Part shown: positions 57 to 9,770 of the stretch, one piece after another | Layout: every line of letters begins with the position of its first letter | Position numbering within the stretch: the first letter of the stretch is position 1 | Virus record (IMG/VR): IMGVR_UViG_3300030419_004842 | Location: 1-40,600 of that record | Length of the DNA stretch: 40,600 nucleotides | Origin: a virus | Reading direction: 5' to 3' (one strand) | Made by a program: the position numbers and the translations under genes | The notes under the pieces: generated by a model | Told to the model about the DNA's origin: nothing | Database searches by the model: none | The model's input: the letters and a program-made list of their open reading frames with translations, nothing else

Positions 57-479
57 GACAAGATAGAAGAAGCCAAAAAATTATTAAAGACAGCAATAGA
101 AACCGATGACGCAGAACTTGTGTCTTTAGCCAACAAAATATTACAGCAGGCAGACAAGAAAACAGAATCCGAACCACCTGACCAAGCCGTGGGGAGAAAC
201 GTTAGTACCGAAGACTTCGTTGCCCCCATCACAAAGCCAGACAAAATGCCTACCCACAAGGGGTCGCCCGTTAACGACGTGAGTAATAGAGTTAATCAAT
301 TTGTGGATGATGGCTCCGAAGCCAAGGACGTATTAACTCCTGACTTTCAGCCCGTTGAACGTCGCCGCCCATCAGTCAAGAAAGTAGATCAGGTCTGCGG
401 ACGATGTAATAAACAGTATTCAGTTCACCCCACACATGTTCGAGAGTTCTTCACCTGCGACAAATGTCTAAAAAAATAA
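54..479 (+). CDS. Small protein with C-terminal zinc ribbon
   Basis: Hypothetical protein of 141 residues. The N-terminal 30 residues look like a charged amphipathic helix (KIEEAKKLLK), the middle is polar and probably disordered, and the C-terminal 30 residues carry two CxxC pairs (CGRC and CDKC about 20 residues apart), which should form a zinc ribbon. It starts at GTG behind a strong Shine-Dalgarno sequence. Its 3' end overlaps the helicase gene by 16 bases, so the two are translationally coupled. A role alongside the helicase (loader or adaptor) is a guess from position only; I do not recognise the family. Confidence 0.7.
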   Translation: MDKIEEAKKLLKTAIETDDAELVSLANKILQQADKKTESEPPDQAVGRNVSTEDFVAPITKPDKMPTHKGSPVNDVSNRVNQFVDDGSEAKDVLTPDFQPVERRRPSVKKVDQVCGRCNKQYSVHPTHVREFFTCDKCLKK

Positions 480-1939
480 ATAAAAAACTGGAAGACTTAG
501 CTGCGGAAAGAGCCGTGTTATCGGCCCTTTGCCAGTATGGCTTAGATGCTTTTCTAGAGGTTGACTTCATTGACGGTGATCATTTTACCGACACGATGAA
601 TCAGCTTTTATTCCACTGTATACATAAGTCAATCTCAGAAAACACTAAGGTGGAACTATCTTCTATACTATCTGCTGCAAACGACTTGGGTGTATACGAT
701 CAGATTAACACAAAAGAGGAAATAGGCTTTCTTAGGTCTCTCTTTAATTTTCCCATCCACAAGGAAAATGTTGGCTCGCACGCAGCAAAAATAGCAAAGC
801 TTAAATTAGCGAGAGACTTAAAAAAGACACTCAAAGCCTGTGAGAAGGATCTTGATTCGGTTACTGGTGACGAAGACATCATGGACCTAGTGGCAAAGAT
901 TGAAGAGCCACTTTTAGATGCCACTGGTGACATATATCAAAACTCCAGCAATAAAACAGAACTTCTTGGAGACGGTATCGACGAATATGTTCAGCATCTC
1001 ACAGAAAACGTGTCTGATTTTGCTGGCATCCCAAGTGGATTCTCTCGGTTTGATATGGCTATTGGCGGAGGGCTCCGGAGGAAGTGCGTAGACCTAGTTG
1101 CCGCCAGACCAAAGGTTGGTAAATCTATGTTTGGTGATGCCGTGGCGATGCATGTTAGCTCCAACCTTAATATTCCGGTACTTGTCTTGGACACAGAAAT
1201 GTCTAAAGAAGATCATTACAACCGTATCCTTGCCAGCATTGCGGGCGTAGAGATCAACAAAATTGCAACCGGAAAATTTTCTGAAAACGAAATAGACAAG
1301 GAAAAGGTTAATAACGCAAAGCTTAAAATGAAAGAGGTGCCATACCATTACATTAGTATAGCCGGGCAATCGTTTGAGGCCATACTTAGCATGATGCGCA
1401 AATGGATTTATCAGCATGTGGGATTTGATGAGAATGGCGCTACAAGAGACTGCCTTATCGTCTACGACTATTTGAAGCTAATGGGCTCTGAGGGGATCAG
1501 TTCTTCAATGCAGGAATATCAGGTTCTTGGGTTTCAGATCACCAAGCTTCACAACTTCATGGTTAAATATGATGTTCCGTGCTTGGCGTTTGTTCAATTA
1601 AACAGAGATGGTATTACTAGAGAATCAACTGACGTGGTATCCGGTTCAGATAGACTAATTTGGTTGTGTACTAGCTTTTCTATATTCAAAATGAAGTCCG
1701 ACGAAGAAATGGCCGACGACAACGCAGAGAACGGAAACAGGAAACTTGTGCCTGTTGTGGCTAGACACGGCGAGGGTCTCGATGACGGCGACTACGTAAG
1801 CATGAAAATGTTTGGCAAATATGGCAGAATAGAGGAAGGACTTACCAGAAATGAAATTCACCAAAATGCGAGATCTAGAGCGGAAGGGTTTGAAATAGAT
1901 GAAGACATTGAGTCAGAATCAAATATCCAAGATCTGTGA
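464..1939 (+). CDS. dnaB: Replicative DNA helicase, DnaB family
   Basis: Replicative helicase of 491 residues that should unwind DNA at the phage fork and work with the primase encoded next. Residues about 10-100 match the DnaB N-terminal helical domain (LEDLAAERAVLSAL). The RecA-like core follows, with Walker A PKVGKS at about 216-221, Walker B LIVYDYLKLM at about 330-340, and a DnaB-type segment near 375 (FVQLNRDG). The length is normal for phage DnaB. The ATG start lies inside the preceding gene, and the 3' end overlaps the primase gene by 41 bases. The family is clear; the oligomeric form and the loader are not visible. Confidence 0.93.
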   Translation: MSKKINKKLEDLAAERAVLSALCQYGLDAFLEVDFIDGDHFTDTMNQLLFHCIHKSISENTKVELSSILSAANDLGVYDQINTKEEIGFLRSLFNFPIHKENVGSHAAKIAKLKLARDLKKTLKACEKDLDSVTGDEDIMDLVAKIEEPLLDATGDIYQNSSNKTELLGDGIDEYVQHLTENVSDFAGIPSGFSRFDMAIGGGLRRKCVDLVAARPKVGKSMFGDAVAMHVSSNLNIPVLVLDTEMSKEDHYNRILASIAGVEINKIATGKFSENEIDKEKVNNAKLKMKEVPYHYISIAGQSFEAILSMMRKWIYQHVGFDENGATRDCLIVYDYLKLMGSEGISSSMQEYQVLGFQITKLHNFMVKYDVPCLAFVQLNRDGITRESTDVVSGSDRLIWLCTSFSIFKMKSDEEMADDNAENGNRKLVPVVARHGEGLDDGDYVSMKMFGKYGRIEEGLTRNEIHQNARSRAEGFEIDEDIESESNIQDL

Positions 1940-2936
1940 AAGCCTATTTGAAGACTTGCCGAAATTATTGGATGCGTTTGGTGTTGAATACATAGAGTAT
2001 CCAAATAGATATTCATTTGCGTGTCCTGTGCATGGTGGAGACAACCCAGAGGGATGTAGTATTTTTACTGATGGAACATCATCAAAGGGAAACTGGCAAT
2101 GCTGGACACACCACTGTGAAGAAGAATACACCAACAACCTATTTGGATTCGTTCGTGGAATGGTGTCTGAACAAAGGTCAAAAAAAATATCACTAAATGA
2201 AACCGCAGCGTTCTGCACCCAGTTTCTCGACACCACTTTGGATAAATTAGATGTTCCAGTATCTAAACCGAATCAAGACTTAAAAATTTTAGAAATATTT
2301 AAAAGATGTATACACAGAGAGCATTCGGGAATATCGAGAGATGAGATTAGATCTAAGATAAACATTCCCTCCAAGTACTATATTGACAGAGGTTTTAAGC
2401 CAGAAACACTAGATGCATTTGACGTAGGTTTGTGTGAGGAGAAATACAAACCTATGTCTGGAAGAGTTGTTGTGCCGATATATGACGAAAACTATAGCTA
2501 TGTGGGGTGTGTGGGTAGAGGTATTTCCCCAGAAATGAAACCAAAATGGCTACATAGTAGTGGGTTTAAAAAGAATGTGCTGTATGGGCTAAACATAGCA
2601 TATAAGTATATACAAGAAAAACAGTCTGTGGTACTGGTTGAAGGGCAGGGGGATGTCTGGAGAATGCACGAAGCTGGCTGTAAAAATTGTGTTGGTATAT
2701 TTGGCTCAAGCATAAATGATGAACAATTGTTGCTCCTTGAACAAAGCGGAGCCATGAATCTAATAATATTGACTGACTCGGACGATGCTGGTAACAAGGC
2801 ATACCTACAAATAATGAAAAAATGTGGAAGAAGATTTAATTATTATAGGCCGGAAATTTCAACCAAGGACGTGGGAGAAATGACCATCGAACAATTACAC
2901 ACTGAACTCTTTCCCCAAATAGAAGGAATGATATAA
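1899..2936 (+). CDS. DNA primase (CHC2-like zinc finger plus Toprim)
   Basis: Primase-like protein of 345 residues. The N-terminal zinc-binding region has CPVH at about residue 42 and a CWTHHC segment near 70, like CHC2-type DnaG zinc fingers. The Toprim domain has the conserved glutamate in VLVEGQGD (about 247-254) and the DSDDAG acidic motif near 293. It is shorter than bacterial DnaG and lacks the C-terminal helicase-binding domain, which is common in phages. It overlaps the helicase gene upstream, and its TAA overlaps the next ATG (TAATG). It should make RNA primers for the polymerase encoded downstream. Confidence 0.88.
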   Translation: MKTLSQNQISKICESLFEDLPKLLDAFGVEYIEYPNRYSFACPVHGGDNPEGCSIFTDGTSSKGNWQCWTHHCEEEYTNNLFGFVRGMVSEQRSKKISLNETAAFCTQFLDTTLDKLDVPVSKPNQDLKILEIFKRCIHREHSGISRDEIRSKINIPSKYYIDRGFKPETLDAFDVGLCEEKYKPMSGRVVVPIYDENYSYVGCVGRGISPEMKPKWLHSSGFKKNVLYGLNIAYKYIQEKQSVVLVEGQGDVWRMHEAGCKNCVGIFGSSINDEQLLLLEQSGAMNLIILTDSDDAGNKAYLQIMKKCGRRFNYYRPEISTKDVGEMTIEQLHTELFPQIEGMI

Positions 2937-3880
2937 TGAATAGTAAAATTCTTGCATTCGCTGGCCACAAACAGGCCGGTAAAACCGCGTGCTCAAATTT
3001 TATACACGGCTACCAGCTCCGAGCGCAGGGTGTTATAAATACATTTAACATAACTACTAAGGGTGAGCTTATTGTAGATACAGTTATAACTAATCCGGAT
3101 GGGACGGAAGAGCGAGCACATGCGGCTCTAGATGTAAGCAGAAATGATGAAGAATTTGCCGCGTGGGCAATGTACAACATGTGGCCATACGTGAAAAAAT
3201 ATTCTTTTGCTGCTCCGCTGAAGGAAATTGCTACAACCCTATTTGGCCTTAAGTCTGAACAGGTGTACGGCACAGAGATACAAAAAAACACTAAAACATG
3301 GTTCAAGTGGGAAGACATGCCGGGAGTTATTACAGACAAGGCAGCAACAAAGCATAAAGATATTCAGGCGGCAATCGAAGAAGGAAGAATCCAGTATCAT
3401 AAGCCGGGCAAAATGACTGCTAGAGAATTTTTACAGTTTTTTGGTACTGATATATGTCGCAACATCTTTCCGGACATCTGGCAAGAGAGACTGATAAACA
3501 GTATAGCCGCAGAAGGGCCACTGGTGGCAATTATTGACGATTGCAGATTTCCAAACGAAATAGAGGCAATTCAGGCAGCTGGTGGAAAAGTGGTACGTCT
3601 TACTCGAAGTCCACACAAAGATGGGCACGCAAGCGAAACTGCTATAGATGGTTACAAGAATTTTGATGCAACGATTGACAATGCGAAACTTTCCATGCAT
3701 GAAACTAATGTGGAAATAATCACGCTGTTGGGTGAGTGGGGCTGGCTAGGAGAGTCGGTTAAGCCGCCGGAGCTGAAGCCGAGGACCCCAGAACCCGAAC
3801 AGCCGAAACACCCACTACAATCGAGCGATGAGCCCGAATTAGTGGGCGGCATACACACCATAAAAAAGGAATCCGAATGA
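2936..3880 (+). CDS. Deoxynucleoside monophosphate kinase (T4 gp1-like)
   Basis: P-loop kinase of 314 residues resembling phage dNMP kinases of the T4 gp1 type, which phosphorylate dNMPs, including modified ones, to dNDPs. Walker A is GHKQAGKT at residues 9-16. The family segment TAREFLQFFGTD is near 160, and VAIIDDCRFPNEIEAI near 196-211 is the typical second conserved block. The last 40 residues form a proline-rich extension absent from T4 gp1, with no evident function. ATGA overlap with the next gene indicates coupling. It probably supplies precursors for replication. Confidence 0.8.
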   Translation: MNSKILAFAGHKQAGKTACSNFIHGYQLRAQGVINTFNITTKGELIVDTVITNPDGTEERAHAALDVSRNDEEFAAWAMYNMWPYVKKYSFAAPLKEIATTLFGLKSEQVYGTEIQKNTKTWFKWEDMPGVITDKAATKHKDIQAAIEEGRIQYHKPGKMTAREFLQFFGTDICRNIFPDIWQERLINSIAAEGPLVAIIDDCRFPNEIEAIQAAGGKVVRLTRSPHKDGHASETAIDGYKNFDATIDNAKLSMHETNVEIITLLGEWGWLGESVKPPELKPRTPEPEQPKHPLQSSDEPELVGGIHTIKKESE

Positions 3881-4899
3881 TAGTTACATATATACGTAGC
3901 TCTTCTTACAACAATTACGATTACTGCCAGATGCAATACTTTATAACGTATGTTCTGGGACATAGATCTATATCAGGCAAGAAAGCACAATTGGGAACGA
4001 TTGTTCATAAGGTAATGGAGTGTCTGGCGGCCTGCAAGAAGGAGCTACAAGAAACAAATAAAAAAATAGGGCTCTCGATAACAGACGATGCTCTTGGTGA
4101 AATAAAGTTTACGGCAAAAAAACTATACACTAAGAAGTTTGTCAAGGATTTGCTTGACTCAAGTTACCAATATTATACCGAGAGCTGTACGCATAGCTAC
4201 ACCGGAGCCGATTTAAGGTTTTGCAAAAAGTCCGTTGATGACGCCCTCTCCTATAACGATGGGCAATTTGACCCTCGCAACAGAAATGTGGTGGCATCAG
4301 AGCCACAATTTGATATTCCAATTGAGGAAGACTGGGCAAAATATGAATACACAATGCCAAATGGAGAAAAGGTTACGGGCCAGTTAGCTATCAAGGGAAC
4401 TATAGATCTGGTGACGGAAATAGATGATGGAGTAATCGAAGTAATAGACTGGAAAACGGGAAGAAGGCTGAATTGGGCCACGGGAGAAGAAAAAACTTAC
4501 GAAAAATTACTTGAAGATCCACAACTCTTATTGTATAATTATGCAATATCCAAGATGTTTCCAGAATACGAACAGGCAATTATGTCGATATTCTATATTA
4601 GGGACGGTGGTCCATTCAGTATGTGTTTCGATAAGGCCGATCAAACAAAGTTCTTAGGTATGCTGGAAAAGAGATTCAAGCAGATAAAAAGAAATGATTC
4701 TCCAATGCCTATTTCAAGAAATAGATCCCACTTCAAGTGTACAAAGCTGTGCCATTTCTATAAAAACAATTGGCCCGGAACAAATATGTCTATGTGTGAA
4801 CATGTAGATGAGCACTTGAAGGCATGTGGAGAGCAAGAAACGATAGAAAGCTGTAGCCGAGAAGGATTTGAAATAGGATACTATGAGGCACCCGGATAA
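3877..4899 (+). CDS. PD-(D/E)XK exonuclease of RecB/Cas4 type, likely Fe-S
   Basis: Nuclease of 340 residues. The active-site block is visible: H44 in TIVHKVME, D177 in GTIDLV, and D191 and K193 in VIDWKTG. One cysteine lies near the N-terminus (C17) and three near the C-terminus (C288, C292, C307). That one-plus-three layout matches the 4Fe-4S latch of AddB, Cas4 and RecB-like nucleases. It sits in the replication operon between the dNMP kinase and another nuclease-like gene, so a role in recombination or end processing is likely. The family is confident; the iron-sulfur cluster is inferred from spacing only. Confidence 0.82.
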   Translation: MIVTYIRSSSYNNYDYCQMQYFITYVLGHRSISGKKAQLGTIVHKVMECLAACKKELQETNKKIGLSITDDALGEIKFTAKKLYTKKFVKDLLDSSYQYYTESCTHSYTGADLRFCKKSVDDALSYNDGQFDPRNRNVVASEPQFDIPIEEDWAKYEYTMPNGEKVTGQLAIKGTIDLVTEIDDGVIEVIDWKTGRRLNWATGEEKTYEKLLEDPQLLLYNYAISKMFPEYEQAIMSIFYIRDGGPFSMCFDKADQTKFLGMLEKRFKQIKRNDSPMPISRNRSHFKCTKLCHFYKNNWPGTNMSMCEHVDEHLKACGEQETIESCSREGFEIGYYEAPG

Positions 4900-5378
4900 T
4901 GATTGAAATAAAGATAACAGAAGAAATGAAGAAGCGGGCTTGGAGCAAGGCTCGCAGCATGGGAGAAATTAACAATTCGATCACAAAAGGCGGCGGTAAC
5001 ATTGCTGGTTTTTTGGGTGAAGAAATCGCTAATAAGATTATTAAAGGTGATATCAATAACACATATGATTATGATATAATTAAAAATGGTGTTACATACG
5101 ATGTTAAAACAAAAAGATGTACTAGCGAACCCAAAGAATATTACGAGTGTTCCGTCGCCGCTTTTAACACTAGGCAAAAATGCGATCATTATGTTTTCGT
5201 TAGGGTGGAAAACGTAAAGGGAAAATGGGGGCGTGCGTGGATACTGGGCTCCTATGAAAAAGATAAGTACTTCAAGGACGCTAGATTTTTGAAAAAGGGA
5301 CAGATCGACGGAAACAACAACTTTAGGGTAAAAGCAGATTGTTATAATATCGCTATTAAGGACCTGAAAGACGTATGA
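4899..5378 (+). CDS. Small PD-(D/E)XK-like nuclease candidate
   Basis: Protein of 159 residues with a possible restriction-endonuclease fold: GFLGEE (E41/E42), then YDYDI (D59), then YDVKTK (D68, K70), which reads as E...D...DxK. The motif is followed by beta-rich sequence, as in small phage or Holliday-type nucleases. It lies between the RecB-like nuclease and the polymerase, with overlaps on both sides (TAATG and ATGA). A recombination or junction nuclease is plausible, but I cannot assign a family by eye. Confidence 0.5.
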   Translation: MIEIKITEEMKKRAWSKARSMGEINNSITKGGGNIAGFLGEEIANKIIKGDINNTYDYDIIKNGVTYDVKTKRCTSEPKEYYECSVAAFNTRQKCDHYVFVRVENVKGKWGRAWILGSYEKDKYFKDARFLKKGQIDGNNNFRVKADCYNIAIKDLKDV

Positions 5379-6970
5379 GCTGGATACCAATAAACTGCAA
5401 GACGCACTTTAGTTTGCTTCAAGCGTTCTCTAAGTGCGAAAAATTGGCTCAAAAGTGTAAAGAGTATGGATATGGAGCGTGCGTCATATCCGACATGAAT
5501 ACTGTTTCTGGGGCTGTAAACTTCCATCAGGCATGTCGTAAGCACGGCATTAAGCCCCTGTTGGGATGTGATTTCGGGGACTACATTCTCATAGCGAAAA
5601 ACAAAGATGGGTGGCTAGATCTAATTAAAATTGTATCACAGCACGATCTGGAGATACTCAAAAATGGAGCCAGTCAAGGCAATCTTATTTGCGTCACCAG
5701 AGACATGCAGCCCGGATATAAAAAACTATTTGGCCCTAATTACTTTTGCTACAATTACGACACCCACAAAGTATATTATGTGACACAAGACGAAGCCGAA
5801 GCCCATCGTGTTATTTTATGTTCTGGAATGAAAACAACATTACCTAAAGCAAGGGCCAAACTCAAGAAAGGCGAAGAAATTGGACATCAAGAGTTTTTTG
5901 AATCGGATGGTTTTTATCTTCCGTCTCCCAAAGAAGTTGAGGACAGCAAGAAAAACATAGATCTATTAAATAAAATAGCCGACATGTGTGAAGAATATGA
6001 AGTCACAGGAAAACCGATGCTTCCCAAATTTGAGTGTCCCGAAGGATTCAACGAGGACCAATACATAAAAGAACTATGTAGGCGTGGGTGGCGTATGAGA
6101 CTAATGGAAAAAGGTGTCGTTTCCGACCCAGAAAAAAAACAAGAGTATCTAGACAGGGTTAATCGGGAGCTTGAGGTTATTTTTAAAGCTAGTCTGTCTG
6201 GGTATTTTTTGATTGTGCAGGATATTGTAAACCACATCAAGGATCAAGGTTGGCTGGCTGGTCCCGGTCGTGGATCAGCTGCGGGATGTTTGATATCTTA
6301 TCTTTTGGGTATCACAGAAGTCGATCCTATCCGGTATGATCTTATTTTTGAAAGATTTTATAACGAAGGAAGAAACTCAGAAGATCATATTTCACTACCA
6401 GACATTGATGTAGATGTTCCGGCGGAGCATCGTGACGAGATCATAGAATACATCAAGCAAAAATATAATCCCGACAACGTGTCACAAATGATTACATTTG
6501 GTAGACTTCAGGGACGAGCAGCACTAAAAGAAGTACTAAGGATTAACGACGCTGTGTCATTCGCTGAAATGAATGAGATAACTAAGTGTATTCCAAATGA
6601 AGCAGACATATCTGACCAATTGGAGGTTATGGAAGATAGGTCTATAATCAAATGGACACTGATGAATGAGCCGGAAGAACTAAAAGAATGGTGTATTATG
6701 GATGAGGAAGGCGGCTTGGATGGATCGCTGGCTTCACTGTTTGATCAAGCCATTAAAATTGAAGGCACTAATAAGTCGCAGGGCAAACATGCGGCTGGTG
6801 TAATTATAGCCAAAGAAAGACTCAAGGATATATGTCCGATGACGCTGGATAGAAGCGGACAAACTATAGCCGCCTTTGAAATGAACGATCTGGAAAATCA
6901 AGGACATGTTAAATTTGACATTCTAGGAATAGATTTATTAAGCAAGATAATGGATATAACAAATGAATAA
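5375..6970 (+). CDS. dnaE: DNA polymerase III alpha, N-terminal half (PHP and palm)
   Basis: First half of a bacterial-type replicative polymerase (531 residues). The PHP domain covers about 1-110 but has lost its metal ligands: the usual HxH is replaced in NCKTHFS and the TDHGN motif reads SDMNT. The palm is intact, with GPGRGSAAG, EVDPIRYDLIFERF, the catalytic aspartates in PDIDVD (343-347) and the third aspartate at 515 in KFDILG. The protein ends 16 residues later, where family members continue without a break; the rest is encoded at 7895-9451. No intein-like sequence is seen at the end. The next gene starts inside its stop region (ATGAATAA). Confidence 0.9.
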   Translation: MSWIPINCKTHFSLLQAFSKCEKLAQKCKEYGYGACVISDMNTVSGAVNFHQACRKHGIKPLLGCDFGDYILIAKNKDGWLDLIKIVSQHDLEILKNGASQGNLICVTRDMQPGYKKLFGPNYFCYNYDTHKVYYVTQDEAEAHRVILCSGMKTTLPKARAKLKKGEEIGHQEFFESDGFYLPSPKEVEDSKKNIDLLNKIADMCEEYEVTGKPMLPKFECPEGFNEDQYIKELCRRGWRMRLMEKGVVSDPEKKQEYLDRVNRELEVIFKASLSGYFLIVQDIVNHIKDQGWLAGPGRGSAAGCLISYLLGITEVDPIRYDLIFERFYNEGRNSEDHISLPDIDVDVPAEHRDEIIEYIKQKYNPDNVSQMITFGRLQGRAALKEVLRINDAVSFAEMNEITKCIPNEADISDQLEVMEDRSIIKWTLMNEPEELKEWCIMDEEGGLDGSLASLFDQAIKIEGTNKSQGKHAAGVIIAKERLKDICPMTLDRSGQTIAAFEMNDLENQGHVKFDILGIDLLSKIMDITNE

Positions 6971-7199
6971 ACTTAAGACGAACGCCCAGCGAGGCGACTA
7001 CAAGTCCGTAATATTTTCCGGCTGCTCAATTGAGTGCAACGGTGTCTCAATATGCAATCTTAGAGATCATAACACTAGTAGCACAGGAAATGGGGGGTCT
7101 AGATATCAGGTATGGTCAGATAGGTACAGGTGTTATGATATGTTCCATAACATAGACGATGCCGTAGACAAGTTTCTTGAGTTAAAGCAAAGGAGATAA
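6963..7199 (+). CDS. 78-residue protein between the polymerase halves
   Basis: Unknown protein of 78 residues. A glycine- and serine-rich middle is followed by aromatic beta-like sequence (RYQVWSDRYRCYD) and a C-terminal helix (IDDAVDKFLELKQ), consistent with a small beta-beta-alpha domain. There are four cysteines but no CxxC pairs. The start overlaps the stop of the polymerase N-half, and its last codons contain the ribosome binding site for the exonuclease. Position suggests co-expression with the polymerase subunits; whether it bridges the two halves is untested. Confidence 0.6.
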   Translation: MNKLKTNAQRGDYKSVIFSGCSIECNGVSICNLRDHNTSSTGNGGSRYQVWSDRYRCYDMFHNIDDAVDKFLELKQRR

Positions 7200-7204
7200 T
7201 CATC
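7189..7204 (+). promoter_or_regulatory. Shine-Dalgarno and probable ATC start of the exonuclease
   Basis: AAAGGAG (7189-7195) is followed after six bases by ATC at 7202. In the exonuclease frame the only open codons after the in-frame TGA at 7178-7180 are GTT, AAA, GCA, AAG, GAG, ATA, ATC and ATC, so no ATG, GTG or TTG precedes the first catalytic motif. The spacing equals that of the GTG start at 54. ATC at 7202 is the best candidate; ATC at 7199 and ATA at 7196 are closer to the Shine-Dalgarno sequence than is usual. Confidence 0.5.
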
Positions 7205-7894
7205 AATTATCGCGATATTATAGTTTTCGACTTTGAGACGGGTGGCGCTAATCCACACACCTGTCAACCAACCCAAATTGCCGCCGTTGCCATACACGCC
7301 AGAAAGCTAGAGATTCAGCCGGGCGGAACTTTCAACAGCGAGATCAGACCCATTATAGATGATGACAAGGCTATCGAGGCAGGTGTTGCACCACTCGAAG
7401 ACAAAGCGCTAGAGATAACAAGAAAAACAAGAAAGGAACTAGCTAAGGCACCGCTTCCTAAGACAGTTTGGAACAAGTTCGCCAAATTTTGCGATAGGTA
7501 CAATTTTAAGAAGACTTCTTATTATGCGCCAATTGCCGCCGGATACAATATCAATGGATATGATATGCCAATCGTAGAACGCATGTGTCAGCAATACGGC
7601 CCTATTGACGAAAAGAAGGGATGTCAAAAGATATTTAATCCCATCTTCACCATTGATGTCATGCAACATATTTATTGTTGGTTTGAGAATAATCAAGATG
7701 TTAAAGGGTATAGTATGGATTACATGCGTGATTATTTCGGGATGAGTGACCAGAGCAAGGAAAACGCGCATGATGCACTACAAGACGTAAAAGATACCGC
7801 CAATCTTATGATAAAGTTCTTGAAGCTGCAAAGAGGACTGTTGAAAAAAGTTAAATTTGAGAAGGCTTTTGCCAAGGGCGAGGTTTACGTTTAG
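7202..7894 (+). CDS. DEDDh 3'-5' proofreading exonuclease (DnaQ-like)
   Basis: Exonuclease of about 230 residues. ExoI is VFDFETGG near residue 8-15 (D and E), ExoII is AGYNINGYD near 113-121, and ExoIII is AHDALQD with a following D near 190-200, giving the DEDDh pattern of DnaQ/epsilon. It lies between the two halves of the polymerase and should supply proofreading, since the polymerase PHP domain looks inactive. There is no canonical start; I chose ATC at 7202 from the Shine-Dalgarno spacing. An internal ATG at 7565 would delete ExoI and is rejected. The TAG stop directly abuts the ATG of the polymerase C-half, in the same frame. Confidence 0.85.
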   Translation: MNYRDIIVFDFETGGANPHTCQPTQIAAVAIHARKLEIQPGGTFNSEIRPIIDDDKAIEAGVAPLEDKALEITRKTRKELAKAPLPKTVWNKFAKFCDRYNFKKTSYYAPIAAGYNINGYDMPIVERMCQQYGPIDEKKGCQKIFNPIFTIDVMQHIYCWFENNQDVKGYSMDYMRDYFGMSDQSKENAHDALQDVKDTANLMIKFLKLQRGLLKKVKFEKAFAKGEVYV

Positions 7895-9451
7895 ATGAAT
7901 GATTTTGATATCAATAATTTTGAAGATGATAATGTTTGGGATTTAATTTGTGATGGTCAAACTAAAGGGGTATTTCAGCTAGAATCCCAGTTGGGCAGAT
8001 CTTGGGCCAAAAAGGTCCAGCCACGCAATATCAATGATTTAGCTGCATTAATATCCCTCATTCGTCCCGGTTGCCTAAGAGCTGTGACGGATGGCAAGTC
8101 CATGACACAACACTATTGCGACAGAAAAGCCAACAAAGATCCTGTCACTTATCCAGACGATTCTCTTGCGAATATTTTGTCTGAGACATACGGCGTTCTT
8201 GTTTACCAAGAGCAGTCTATGATGATAGCTCAAAAATTGGCTGGGTTTGACCTCAAGGAAGCCGACGATCTTCGAAAAGCCATCGGCAAAAAGAAAGCCA
8301 ACCTAATGGAAAAGGTGAAGGGAGCATTTCTCAAGGGAGCTGAGAAAGAGGGGGTTGTCACTAAAGAGGTTGCAGAGGAAATTTTTTCTTGGATCGAAAA
8401 GTCCAATAGATACGCATTTAATAAGTCACACGCAGTGTCATATGCAATCAATGCTTACTGGAGCGCGTATTGCAAACGATATAGGACCGTGCGATTCTAT
8501 GTGTCTTACTTAAACCATTCTGATCGGAAACCTGATTCCCAGAAAGAATTGAAAGAGCTTATTGTAGATGCCAAGCTTTCAGATATTGAGGTTTATCCGC
8601 CCAGACTTCAGCACCTTTACACAGACTTTTGCGCAAAGGACCAAAGAATATATTTTGGAATGAGGCACATTAAACATGTGGGAGAAAAAGAGTGCCAAAA
8701 AATAGAAGACATATGTAATGAAAAAGACATTTCGTCCTATGCGTGGATGGACATATTAACACGAGTCATACATAAAACAAGGCTAAACAAAAGAGCGGCT
8801 ATCGCTCTCATATCCGTAGGGGCGTTTAATGGCGCAAACAACACCATGGATCGAGAGCAAATGTTGTATGAATTTGATAGCTGGAAGGGCTTAACCGCCA
8901 GAGAGCAAGAATATATTGTTAATGCGCGAGATAGCTATGATAAAGATACCACTCTTTCGGAATGTATTGGAGACATGATCAATAATAGCAAGATTAACAG
9001 CCGAAGACTTACCACAGTTCTTGCCATTAAACAAATGTTGGACAAGCCTCCCCACGACCTAAAGGACAACATTCCTTTAATAGCGCAAAACGAGGAGAAG
9101 TACATGGGGTGTGCACTTACTTGCAGCAGAACAGATGCTATTAATATAAATTTTTCAAGTTCTTTGTGTCGAGATATTATAAAAGGGGCGATAACTGGTA
9201 AGACAAATGTTGTTGCTCAAGTTAGTTCTGTAAGGGAGTATAGGACCAAACGCGGTAAAAATCCGGGCCAATTAATGGCCTTCTTGTGCATTGAAGATAG
9301 CAGCGGATCATTAGATTCAGTGACAATCTTTCCAGAATCTTATGGAAAATACAGGGACTTGCTAATAGAGGGCAATACTGTTTTGATGGCTGGAGAAATT
9401 TCTAAAAAAGAAAACACTTCATTGATAATAAATAAAGTTTCGCAAATTTGA
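7895..9451 (+). CDS. dnaE: DNA polymerase III alpha, C-terminal half
   Basis: Second half of the polymerase (518 residues). It begins just before TKGVFQLES, the point at which the N-half stops in family alignments. It carries LIRPGC, YGVLVYQEQ, the ADDLRKAIGKKK block and YAFNKSHAVSYA, which form the fingers and nucleotide-binding region. A helix-hairpin-helix-type region and an OB fold follow near 430-518 (VVAQVSSVREYRTKRGK onward). The C-terminal tau-binding domain of bacterial DnaE is missing. It has no catalytic aspartate of its own, so it must pair with the product of 5375-6970. The ATG follows the exonuclease TAG with no gap. Confidence 0.9.
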   Translation: MNDFDINNFEDDNVWDLICDGQTKGVFQLESQLGRSWAKKVQPRNINDLAALISLIRPGCLRAVTDGKSMTQHYCDRKANKDPVTYPDDSLANILSETYGVLVYQEQSMMIAQKLAGFDLKEADDLRKAIGKKKANLMEKVKGAFLKGAEKEGVVTKEVAEEIFSWIEKSNRYAFNKSHAVSYAINAYWSAYCKRYRTVRFYVSYLNHSDRKPDSQKELKELIVDAKLSDIEVYPPRLQHLYTDFCAKDQRIYFGMRHIKHVGEKECQKIEDICNEKDISSYAWMDILTRVIHKTRLNKRAAIALISVGAFNGANNTMDREQMLYEFDSWKGLTAREQEYIVNARDSYDKDTTLSECIGDMINNSKINSRRLTTVLAIKQMLDKPPHDLKDNIPLIAQNEEKYMGCALTCSRTDAININFSSSLCRDIIKGAITGKTNVVAQVSSVREYRTKRGKNPGQLMAFLCIEDSSGSLDSVTIFPESYGKYRDLLIEGNTVLMAGEISKKENTSLIINKVSQI

Positions 9452-9461
9452 AAGGGTGTAG

Positions 9462-9770
9462 ATGAATAGATGTCATTTTTTAGGGAGGTTGACTGAAGAT
9501 CCCGAAGTCTATGATGCGCAAGGCACGCAAGTAGTACAATTCATCTTGGAGATTGAAGAGTATAGAAAAGACAAGCACGGCTCCAAAAAAAGGCGTGTAG
9601 ACCTATTGGACTTTGAAGCGTGGGACTCAGCGGCTCACGCAATAAGAAAATACGCTAGAATAGGGGACATCATGGCTGTTGAAGCAATAGCCAGAAGGGA
9701 CAGAGATGACTTCATAACCTTTAGGGTTACTACATTCAAGATTTTGCCACAGGATGATTTTGACGAATAA
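9462..9770 (+). CDS. ssb: Single-stranded DNA-binding protein
   Basis: OB-fold SSB of 102 residues. It begins NRCHFLGRLTEDPEV, the typical first strand of SSB proteins, and continues through VDLLDFEAWDSAAHAIRKY. The C-terminal tip is acidic (DDFDE), like the protein-interaction tail of bacterial SSB but without the final phenylalanine. It is shorter than E. coli SSB because the flexible linker is nearly absent. It starts behind AAAGGG, ten bases after the polymerase gene, and its TAA overlaps the first glycosyltransferase ATG, so the replication operon runs directly into the glycan island. Confidence 0.85.
   Translation: MNRCHFLGRLTEDPEVYDAQGTQVVQFILEIEEYRKDKHGSKKRRVDLLDFEAWDSAAHAIRKYARIGDIMAVEAIARRDRDDFITFRVTTFKILPQDDFDE

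What the first reader, a model, noticed from the sequence alone, without database searches (positions are those of the whole stretch)
5375..9451. Replicative DNA polymerase III alpha split into two genes around a proofreading exonuclease
Seen: the polymerase stops 16 residues after the third catalytic aspartate (KFDILG) and resumes at 7895 just before TKGVFQLES, with two other genes between. Known: bacterial DnaE/PolC is normally one chain and known natural DnaE splits use split inteins at another site; no intein motif is seen here. Inference: two chains assemble non-covalently, and the exonuclease between them may keep subunits in balance.
Basis: partly seen in the sequence, partly recalled or inferred. 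Interest (0 to 1): 0.78.

Follow-up and report, generated by a model that had tools for sequence, protein, structure and literature searches.

The report
Phage DNA polymerase split in two
A large, so far uncultured group of bacterial viruses makes its only detected DNA-copying enzyme as two separate proteins, cut between the catalytic palm and the fingers, with the gene for the proofreading enzyme placed between the two halves; the cut is real and ancient, and one virus lineage appears to have joined the halves again.

Summary
DnaE (Pol III alpha) is encoded as N (5375-6970: PHP + palm, all three catalytic aspartates) and C (7895-9451: fingers, HhH, OB), separated by a 78-aa ORF and a DEDDh exonuclease. 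It is not an error: among 84 distinct viral clusters, 83 carry the same break with the exonuclease between the halves. N, EXO and C are under strong purifying selection. The halves map to consecutive parts of E. coli/Taq alpha with only linker between, and both fold confidently onto the same PDB chains. There is no intein or intron at the junction. Eighteen large contigs carry one palm and one finger domain each and no detectable PolA, PolB or beta clamp, so the two-piece enzyme is probably the replicase. The split clade is supported 100/100 against single-chain DnaEs. One lineage (L058/L062), nested inside it, has the halves in one reading frame with the exonuclease upstream, most simply a re-fusion. 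Best mechanism: two chains assemble non-covalently, co-expressed with the proofreading subunit from one operon. Known split phage polymerases (T4-like 43A/43B, split PolA, jumbo-phage minimal Pol III, split-intein DnaE) differ in family, break site or mechanism. Non-covalent assembly and activity are untested.

The parts
5375..6970 (+). DnaE-N: PHP-like domain (degenerate metal motif) + palm with all three catalytic Asp (PDIDVD, KFDILG); no fingers
   Evidence: Pfam PF07733 2.2e-72, PF02811 1.2e-16; maps to E. coli alpha residues about 9-563; AlphaFold pLDDT 91.9; Foldseek to 2hnh/2hpi/4iqj
6963..7199 (+). S78: 78-aa protein of unknown function, conserved between N and EXO in about 36 of 84 clusters; ATG overlaps the N stop
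   Evidence: No Pfam/PHROG match; aligned across relatives; dN/dS 0.12 against L003
7190..7195 (+). Shine-Dalgarno-like AAGGAG for EXO
   Evidence: Sequence; same motif before ATC/ATT starts in several relatives
7202..7894 (+). EXO: DEDDh (DnaQ-type) 3'-5' exonuclease, probable ATC start at 7202; D10, E12, D121, H190, D195 invariant
   Evidence: Pfam RNase_T, phrog_192; alignment A6; start codon census
7895..9451 (+). DnaE-C: fingers (PF17657), HhH (PF14579), OB fold; ATG directly after the EXO stop
9462..9770 (+). SSB, next gene of the replication module
   Evidence: Pfam SSB 1.3e-10
464..1939 (+). DnaB-type helicase of the same module
   Evidence: PF03796 3.8e-23, phrog_19
1899..2936 (+). 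Primase (Toprim/DnaG-type)
   Evidence: phrog_47 2.7e-42; Toprim

Best explanation
The phage makes its replicative C-family polymerase as two chains cut at the palm/fingers boundary. DnaE-N brings the PHP platform and the catalytic palm; DnaE-C brings the fingers, the HhH and the OB fold. The chains assemble non-covalently into one alpha subunit, proofread in trans by the DEDDh exonuclease made from the gene between them. The order N - (S78) - EXO - C, with overlapping or abutting genes, keeps all pieces on one message and near-stoichiometric. The split most likely arose once, in the ancestor of a large uncultured phage clade, when an exonuclease-bearing segment entered a non-conserved linker of a single-chain dnaE. 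One lineage later moved that segment upstream and restored one reading frame. Shown: the break, its conservation, its domain position, purifying selection, no alternative polymerase found, and the tree. Inferred: non-covalent assembly, activity, EXO binding, how the split arose, stoichiometric control.
For: 83 of 84 clusters are split with EXO between the halves. The split clade separates 100/100 from fused phage and bacterial DnaEs. Halves map to E. coli 6-563 and 591-889, Taq 11-626 and 644-948, with nothing but linker missing. Both AlphaFold models are confident (91.9, 90.9) and hit the same PDB chains. dN/dS is 0.02-0.06 for N, EXO and C. One palm and one finger domain, no PolA, PolB or beta clamp, in 18 contigs of 61-244 kb. 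In L058/L062 the halves sit in one ORF whose linker aligns end to end with the split termini: a Rosetta-stone fusion. L062 is nested in the split clade (98/97; AU p = 0.0035 against placing it outside). EXO stop to C start is 10 nt or less, or overlapping, in 62 of 83 clusters. EXO catalytic residues are invariant. The window's module has helicase, primase, kinase, nuclease, DnaE-N, EXO, DnaE-C and SSB in a row.
Against: No biochemical or proteomic data: assembly, activity and EXO contact are untested, and no complex model could be run. The large contigs may be incomplete, so another polymerase outside them is not excluded. The re-fused lineage rests on one virus (two contigs, 100% identical over 14.4 kb); with C-half columns alone the AU test does not reject its placement outside (p = 0.24). 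The function of S78 is unknown. A phage-host hybrid (host epsilon, host clamp) cannot be ruled out from sequence alone.
Confidence: 0.83

Rival explanations
1. The halves are joined after translation by a trans-splicing intein, as in cyanobacterial DnaE, so one chain forms after all.
For: Relatives L052, L054, L058/L062 and L061 carry split inteins in DnaE with a free-standing endonuclease between IntN and IntC, so protein splicing probably occurs in this clade.
Against: Those inteins are at FNK|SHAVSYA inside the C half, not at the palm/fingers break. At the break N has only 16 residues after KFD, and C starts directly with FDINNF and runs into the fingers; no intein motif is seen in the window or in any of the relatives whose junction was read.
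Confidence: 0.03
2. Assembly error, frameshift or pseudogene: one dnaE gene broken by sequencing or decay.
For: Phage genes are often broken in draft metagenomes.
Against: Same break in 83 of 84 clusters at down to about 40% identity, from many assemblies; strong purifying selection; overlapping starts and stops.
Confidence: 0.01
3. A self-splicing intron removes 6971-7894 from the mRNA and restores one frame.
For: Group I introns do interrupt phage polymerase genes.
Against: No Rfam intron in the window or at the junction even at relaxed threshold. The spacer is conserved protein-coding sequence; its length varies from about 0.7 to several kb and other genes insert on either side of EXO.
Confidence: 0.01
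4. The break began as a fractured gene: a homing endonuclease (with or without a split intein) originally opened dnaE here, and the EXO segment later replaced it. Same two-chain product, different origin.
For: Endonuclease VII-like HNH genes sit between EXO and C in L005, L036 and probably L010; split inteins with an endonuclease occur elsewhere in the same gene; homing endonucleases are known to split phage genes (PMC2988022).
Against: EXO, not an endonuclease, is the constant element between the halves; the junction is a variable linker, not a conserved motif typical of intein or homing sites; the endonucleases are scattered and look like later arrivals.
Confidence: 0.25
5. The L062 single chain was never split, so the clade holds two or more independent splits rather than one split and one re-fusion.
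For: C-half columns alone do not reject L062 outside the split clade (AU p = 0.24).
Against: Concatenated AU test p = 0.0035, N-half p = 0.036; L062 shares S78 and EXO with the split members, EXO directly upstream.
Confidence: 0.1

Closest known systems
Split 'minimal' DNA polymerase III alpha of T4-like jumbo phages (Iyer et al. 2021, PMC7824862)
   Same: C-family polymerase in two proteins of a phage, thought to reconstitute one enzyme
   Different: There: a minimal core, two distant genes, beside a PolB, cut between the NTP-binding part and the Mg2+/template-binding part (in PHROG terms families end or begin at window residues about 336-341, my mapping). Here: full-length domains, genes in one operon around the exonuclease, no PolB detected, cut after the third Asp at palm/fingers.
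Genes-in-pieces in T4-like phages: 43A/43B PolB of Aeromonas phages, Aeh1 nrdA split by mobE, T4 gene 60 split by mobA (PMC2988022)
   Same: Essential replication gene cut into two polypeptides that must reassemble without splicing; Aeh1 RNR reported functional there
   Different: Other protein families; the intervening sequence is a homing endonuclease or untranslated spacer, in few phages; here the spacer encodes a proofreading-type exonuclease and the state is clade-wide.
Split family A polymerase of OM43 phages MEP401/402 (PMC10580990)
   Same: Replicative phage polymerase in two ORFs with a small unknown ORF between, in a lineage
   Different: PolA family, exonuclease domain in the first ORF; the authors considered an intron possible.
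Split-intein DnaE of cyanobacteria and 'fractured genes' with split inteins (Dassa et al. 2009, cited in PMC3229294; content from memory)
   Same: DnaE in separate genes; relatives L052/L054/L058/L061 look like this kind at FNK|SHAVSYA
   Different: Chains are ligated by the intein; the junction studied here has none and lies at another site.
PolC and alpha-epsilon pairs of cellular replicases
   Same: Alpha plus DEDDh proofreading exonuclease
   Different: Alpha is one chain in cells; PolC carries the exonuclease inside its chain (from general knowledge).

Membership tests
C-family DNA polymerase (DnaE / Pol III alpha) | Pol III alpha palm with GPGRGS and the Asp triad PDxDxD ... KFDxLG | tested here: met
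   PF07733 2.2e-72; catalytic Asp invariant in a 45-row alignment
C-family DNA polymerase (DnaE / Pol III alpha) | Fingers, HhH and OB domains | tested here: met
   PF17657 4.6e-46 and PF14579 4.9e-12 in the C chain; OB match 8.7e-4, below Pfam's cut-off, but a C-terminal strand-rich domain is seen in the model and its top partial fold matches are OB proteins
C-family DNA polymerase (DnaE / Pol III alpha) | All domains in one chain (usual state) | tested here: not met
   Two ORFs in 83 of 84 clusters
DEDDh (DnaQ/epsilon-type) 3'-5' exonuclease | D-E (ExoI), D (ExoII), H and D (ExoIII) | tested here: met
   D10, E12, D121, H190, D195 invariant in 23 rows
DEDDh (DnaQ/epsilon-type) 3'-5' exonuclease | Physical association with alpha | not testable with these tools
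   No complex prediction available
Split-intein (fractured) DnaE | IntN after N, IntC before C, trans-splicing | tested here: not met
   No intein sequence at this junction; present only at another site in some relatives
Genes-in-pieces (non-spliced split phage gene) | Two co-oriented ORFs replacing one, no splicing element, both under selection | tested here: met
Genes-in-pieces (non-spliced split phage gene) | Two polypeptides assemble into active enzyme | not testable with these tools
   Needs biochemistry
Jumbo-phage minimal split Pol III | Break upstream of the catalytic Asp pair, minimal core, companion PolB | tested here: not met
   Break after third Asp; PHP, HhH and OB kept; no PolB in 18 contigs

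The most novel reading that the evidence does not exclude
A whole, deep, uncultured phage clade replicates with an obligate two-chain family C replicase cut between palm and fingers, in which the proofreading exonuclease gene has stayed between the halves since the split; the clade holds both the two-chain state and a natural re-fusion, a ready-made experiment on why a replicase should or should not be one chain.
Probability: 0.7. Interest if true: 0.72.

Novelty: new variant of a known kind. Interest (0 to 1): 0.64.

Why it matters
The replicative polymerase of bacteria is treated as a single indivisible chain. A large phage group runs with it cut at the palm/fingers hinge, the moving part of the catalytic cycle, without splicing. 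That gives a natural split site for two-part Pol III enzymes, a test of whether fingers closure can be driven from a separate chain, and a case where gene order (proofreader between the two halves) may encode stoichiometry. It also matters for annotation: the pieces are easily mis-called as broken genes, and no isolate with this arrangement turned up among the best INPHARED matches.

Tried and rejected
Swapping of halves between lineages (L051 group placed differently in N and C trees): AU test does not support it (p = 0.61). Provirus or host context: the genome-contig scan returned only DnaEs at about 30% identity from bacterial genomes. Isolated phages: three N-half queries and one C-half query against INPHARED gave listed hits of at most about 35% identity; of six inspected, five were fused and one (L133) is broken within the N part. 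S78 has no Pfam or PHROG match. Promoter scan at chance level, terminator scan slightly above it, neither informative. A -1 frameshift from S78 into EXO was considered instead of an ATC start; by eye there is no canonical slippery heptamer at the S78 end, and relatives have ATG plus SD at the same place. Papers: no description of this palm/fingers split found in nine searches, several of them aimed at side questions; the library covers open-licence papers only.

Full report
OBSERVATION. The window (40.6 kb of a 61,278-base IMG/VR virus record) carries a replication module on the + strand: DnaB-type helicase 464-1939, primase 1899-2936, dNMP kinase-like 2936-3880, PD-(D/E)XK nuclease 3877-4899, a 159-aa ORF, DnaE-N 5375-6970, S78 6963-7199, EXO 7202-7894, DnaE-C 7895-9451, SSB 9462-9770. 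DnaE-N has PHP and palm and stops 16 residues after D515 of KFDILG; DnaE-C starts about 22 residues before TKGVFQLES.

POSITION OF THE BREAK. By sequence, N aligns with E. coli alpha from about residue 6 to 563 and Taq 11-626; C aligns with E. coli 591-889 and Taq 644-948 plus a weak OB match at 1048-1114. So the cut is between palm and fingers, in a linker, with nothing essential lost. AlphaFold models of each half are confident (mean pLDDT 91.9 and 90.9) and Foldseek puts both on the same Pol III alpha chains (2hpi, 3e0d, 4iqj, 7pu7, 2hnh). N alone has the catalytic aspartates but no fingers; C alone the reverse.

NOT AN ARTEFACT. Three scans of viral contigs, mapped, gave 84 viral clusters at 85% N identity for which both halves were found: 83 are split, all with EXO between N and C, and 36 of the 84 have a recognisable S78; one is fused. 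Stops and starts fall at the homologous linker in the loci read individually. Against the close relative L003, dN/dS is 0.05 (N), 0.02 (EXO), 0.04 (C), 0.12 (S78); against others dS is often saturated. Rfam finds no intron in the window or at the junction.

SOLE POLYMERASE FOUND. In 18 contigs of 61-244 kb there is one palm match and one finger match each (G017 has two finger matches because an in-frame intein interrupts that domain), no PolB, no PolA and no beta clamp; control genomes ring as expected. Contigs may be incomplete.

HISTORY. The split clade separates from fused phage and bacterial DnaEs with 100/100 on a long branch. The one fused member (L058/L059/L062/L063, two contigs with 100% identical 14.4-kb stretches) has S78-EXO directly upstream of a DnaE whose linker KFDILGVDILSKIDKIAKYANIDLDNWEDVETWRLLCEGDTRGVFQLE aligns end to end with the termini of the split halves. 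It is nested in the split clade: 98/97 support, AU test against placing it outside p = 0.0035 concatenated, 0.036 for N alone, 0.24 for C alone. Simplest reading: one split, one re-fusion with the exonuclease segment moved out. In the fused phage outgroups read here no EXO homologue was detected within the stretch fetched.

MECHANISM. EXO has all DEDDh residues invariant; DnaE-N's PHP motif is degenerate by eye (KTHFS in place of HxHxxxS), so a trans-acting proofreader makes sense. EXO stop and C start overlap or lie within 10 nt in 62 of 83 clusters, and S78's ATG overlaps the N stop in the window: this fits translational coupling of the pieces. Other genes are inserted next to EXO in several relatives (methyltransferase-like and endonuclease VII-like; others of unassigned function), yet EXO never leaves the space between the halves except in the fused lineage. 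I infer non-covalent assembly of N and C plus EXO; this is not shown.

INTEINS NEARBY. L052, L054, L058/L062 and L061 have a split intein at FNK|SHAVSYA in the C half, with a free-standing endonuclease ORF (DUF559 match for L052) between IntN and IntC, so L052, L054 and L061 encode DnaE in three pieces. L081 and L078 have an in-frame intein at RPG|C. The palm/fingers break has no intein.

COMPARISON. Split Pol III alpha is known in T4-like jumbo phages (PMC7824862) but as a minimal core from distant genes beside a PolB, cut elsewhere. Genes-in-pieces are known in T4-like phages (PMC2988022) and a split PolA in OM43 phages (PMC10580990). I found no paper on this arrangement, and no isolate with it among the INPHARED top hits. 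Hence 'new variant of a known kind'.

Noticed in passing
window 7190-7204; L003, L004, L046, L054, L143, L145, L150, L166: The proofreading exonuclease has no ATG/GTG/TTG start; ATC or ATT stands where relatives have ATG, often behind a good Shine-Dalgarno, in about six lineages (16 loci). Possible AUU/AUC-limited expression as in infC (from memory).
   Followed up: partly
L052, L054, L058/L062, L061: Split intein at FNK|SHAVSYA in DnaE (three residues from the cyanobacterial site, from memory) with a free-standing endonuclease ORF between IntN and IntC.
   Followed up: partly
L081 8451-9300; L078 8500-9420: In-frame intein with HNH endonuclease at RPG|C in the fingers domain.
   Followed up: partly
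L116 5250-5750: N half interrupted between FERFYSDGRN and SLPDIDIDVP, near where PHROG pieces phrog_7513/13169 end and 12219 begins; phrog_13169 also weakly matches the IntN at its C-terminus, hinting that that known break may involve a split intein.
   Followed up: partly
window 6963-7199: S78: conserved small protein of unknown function between DnaE-N and EXO, candidate extra subunit.
   Followed up: partly
L005, L036, L010 between EXO and C: Endonuclease VII-like HNH gene exactly between EXO and DnaE-C (Pfam in L005 and L036; L010 by eye).
   Followed up: partly
L133 (Bacillus phage vB_BpsS-140) 3004-6617: DnaE broken by a frame change within the N part and not listed in the record's feature table.
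   Followed up: no
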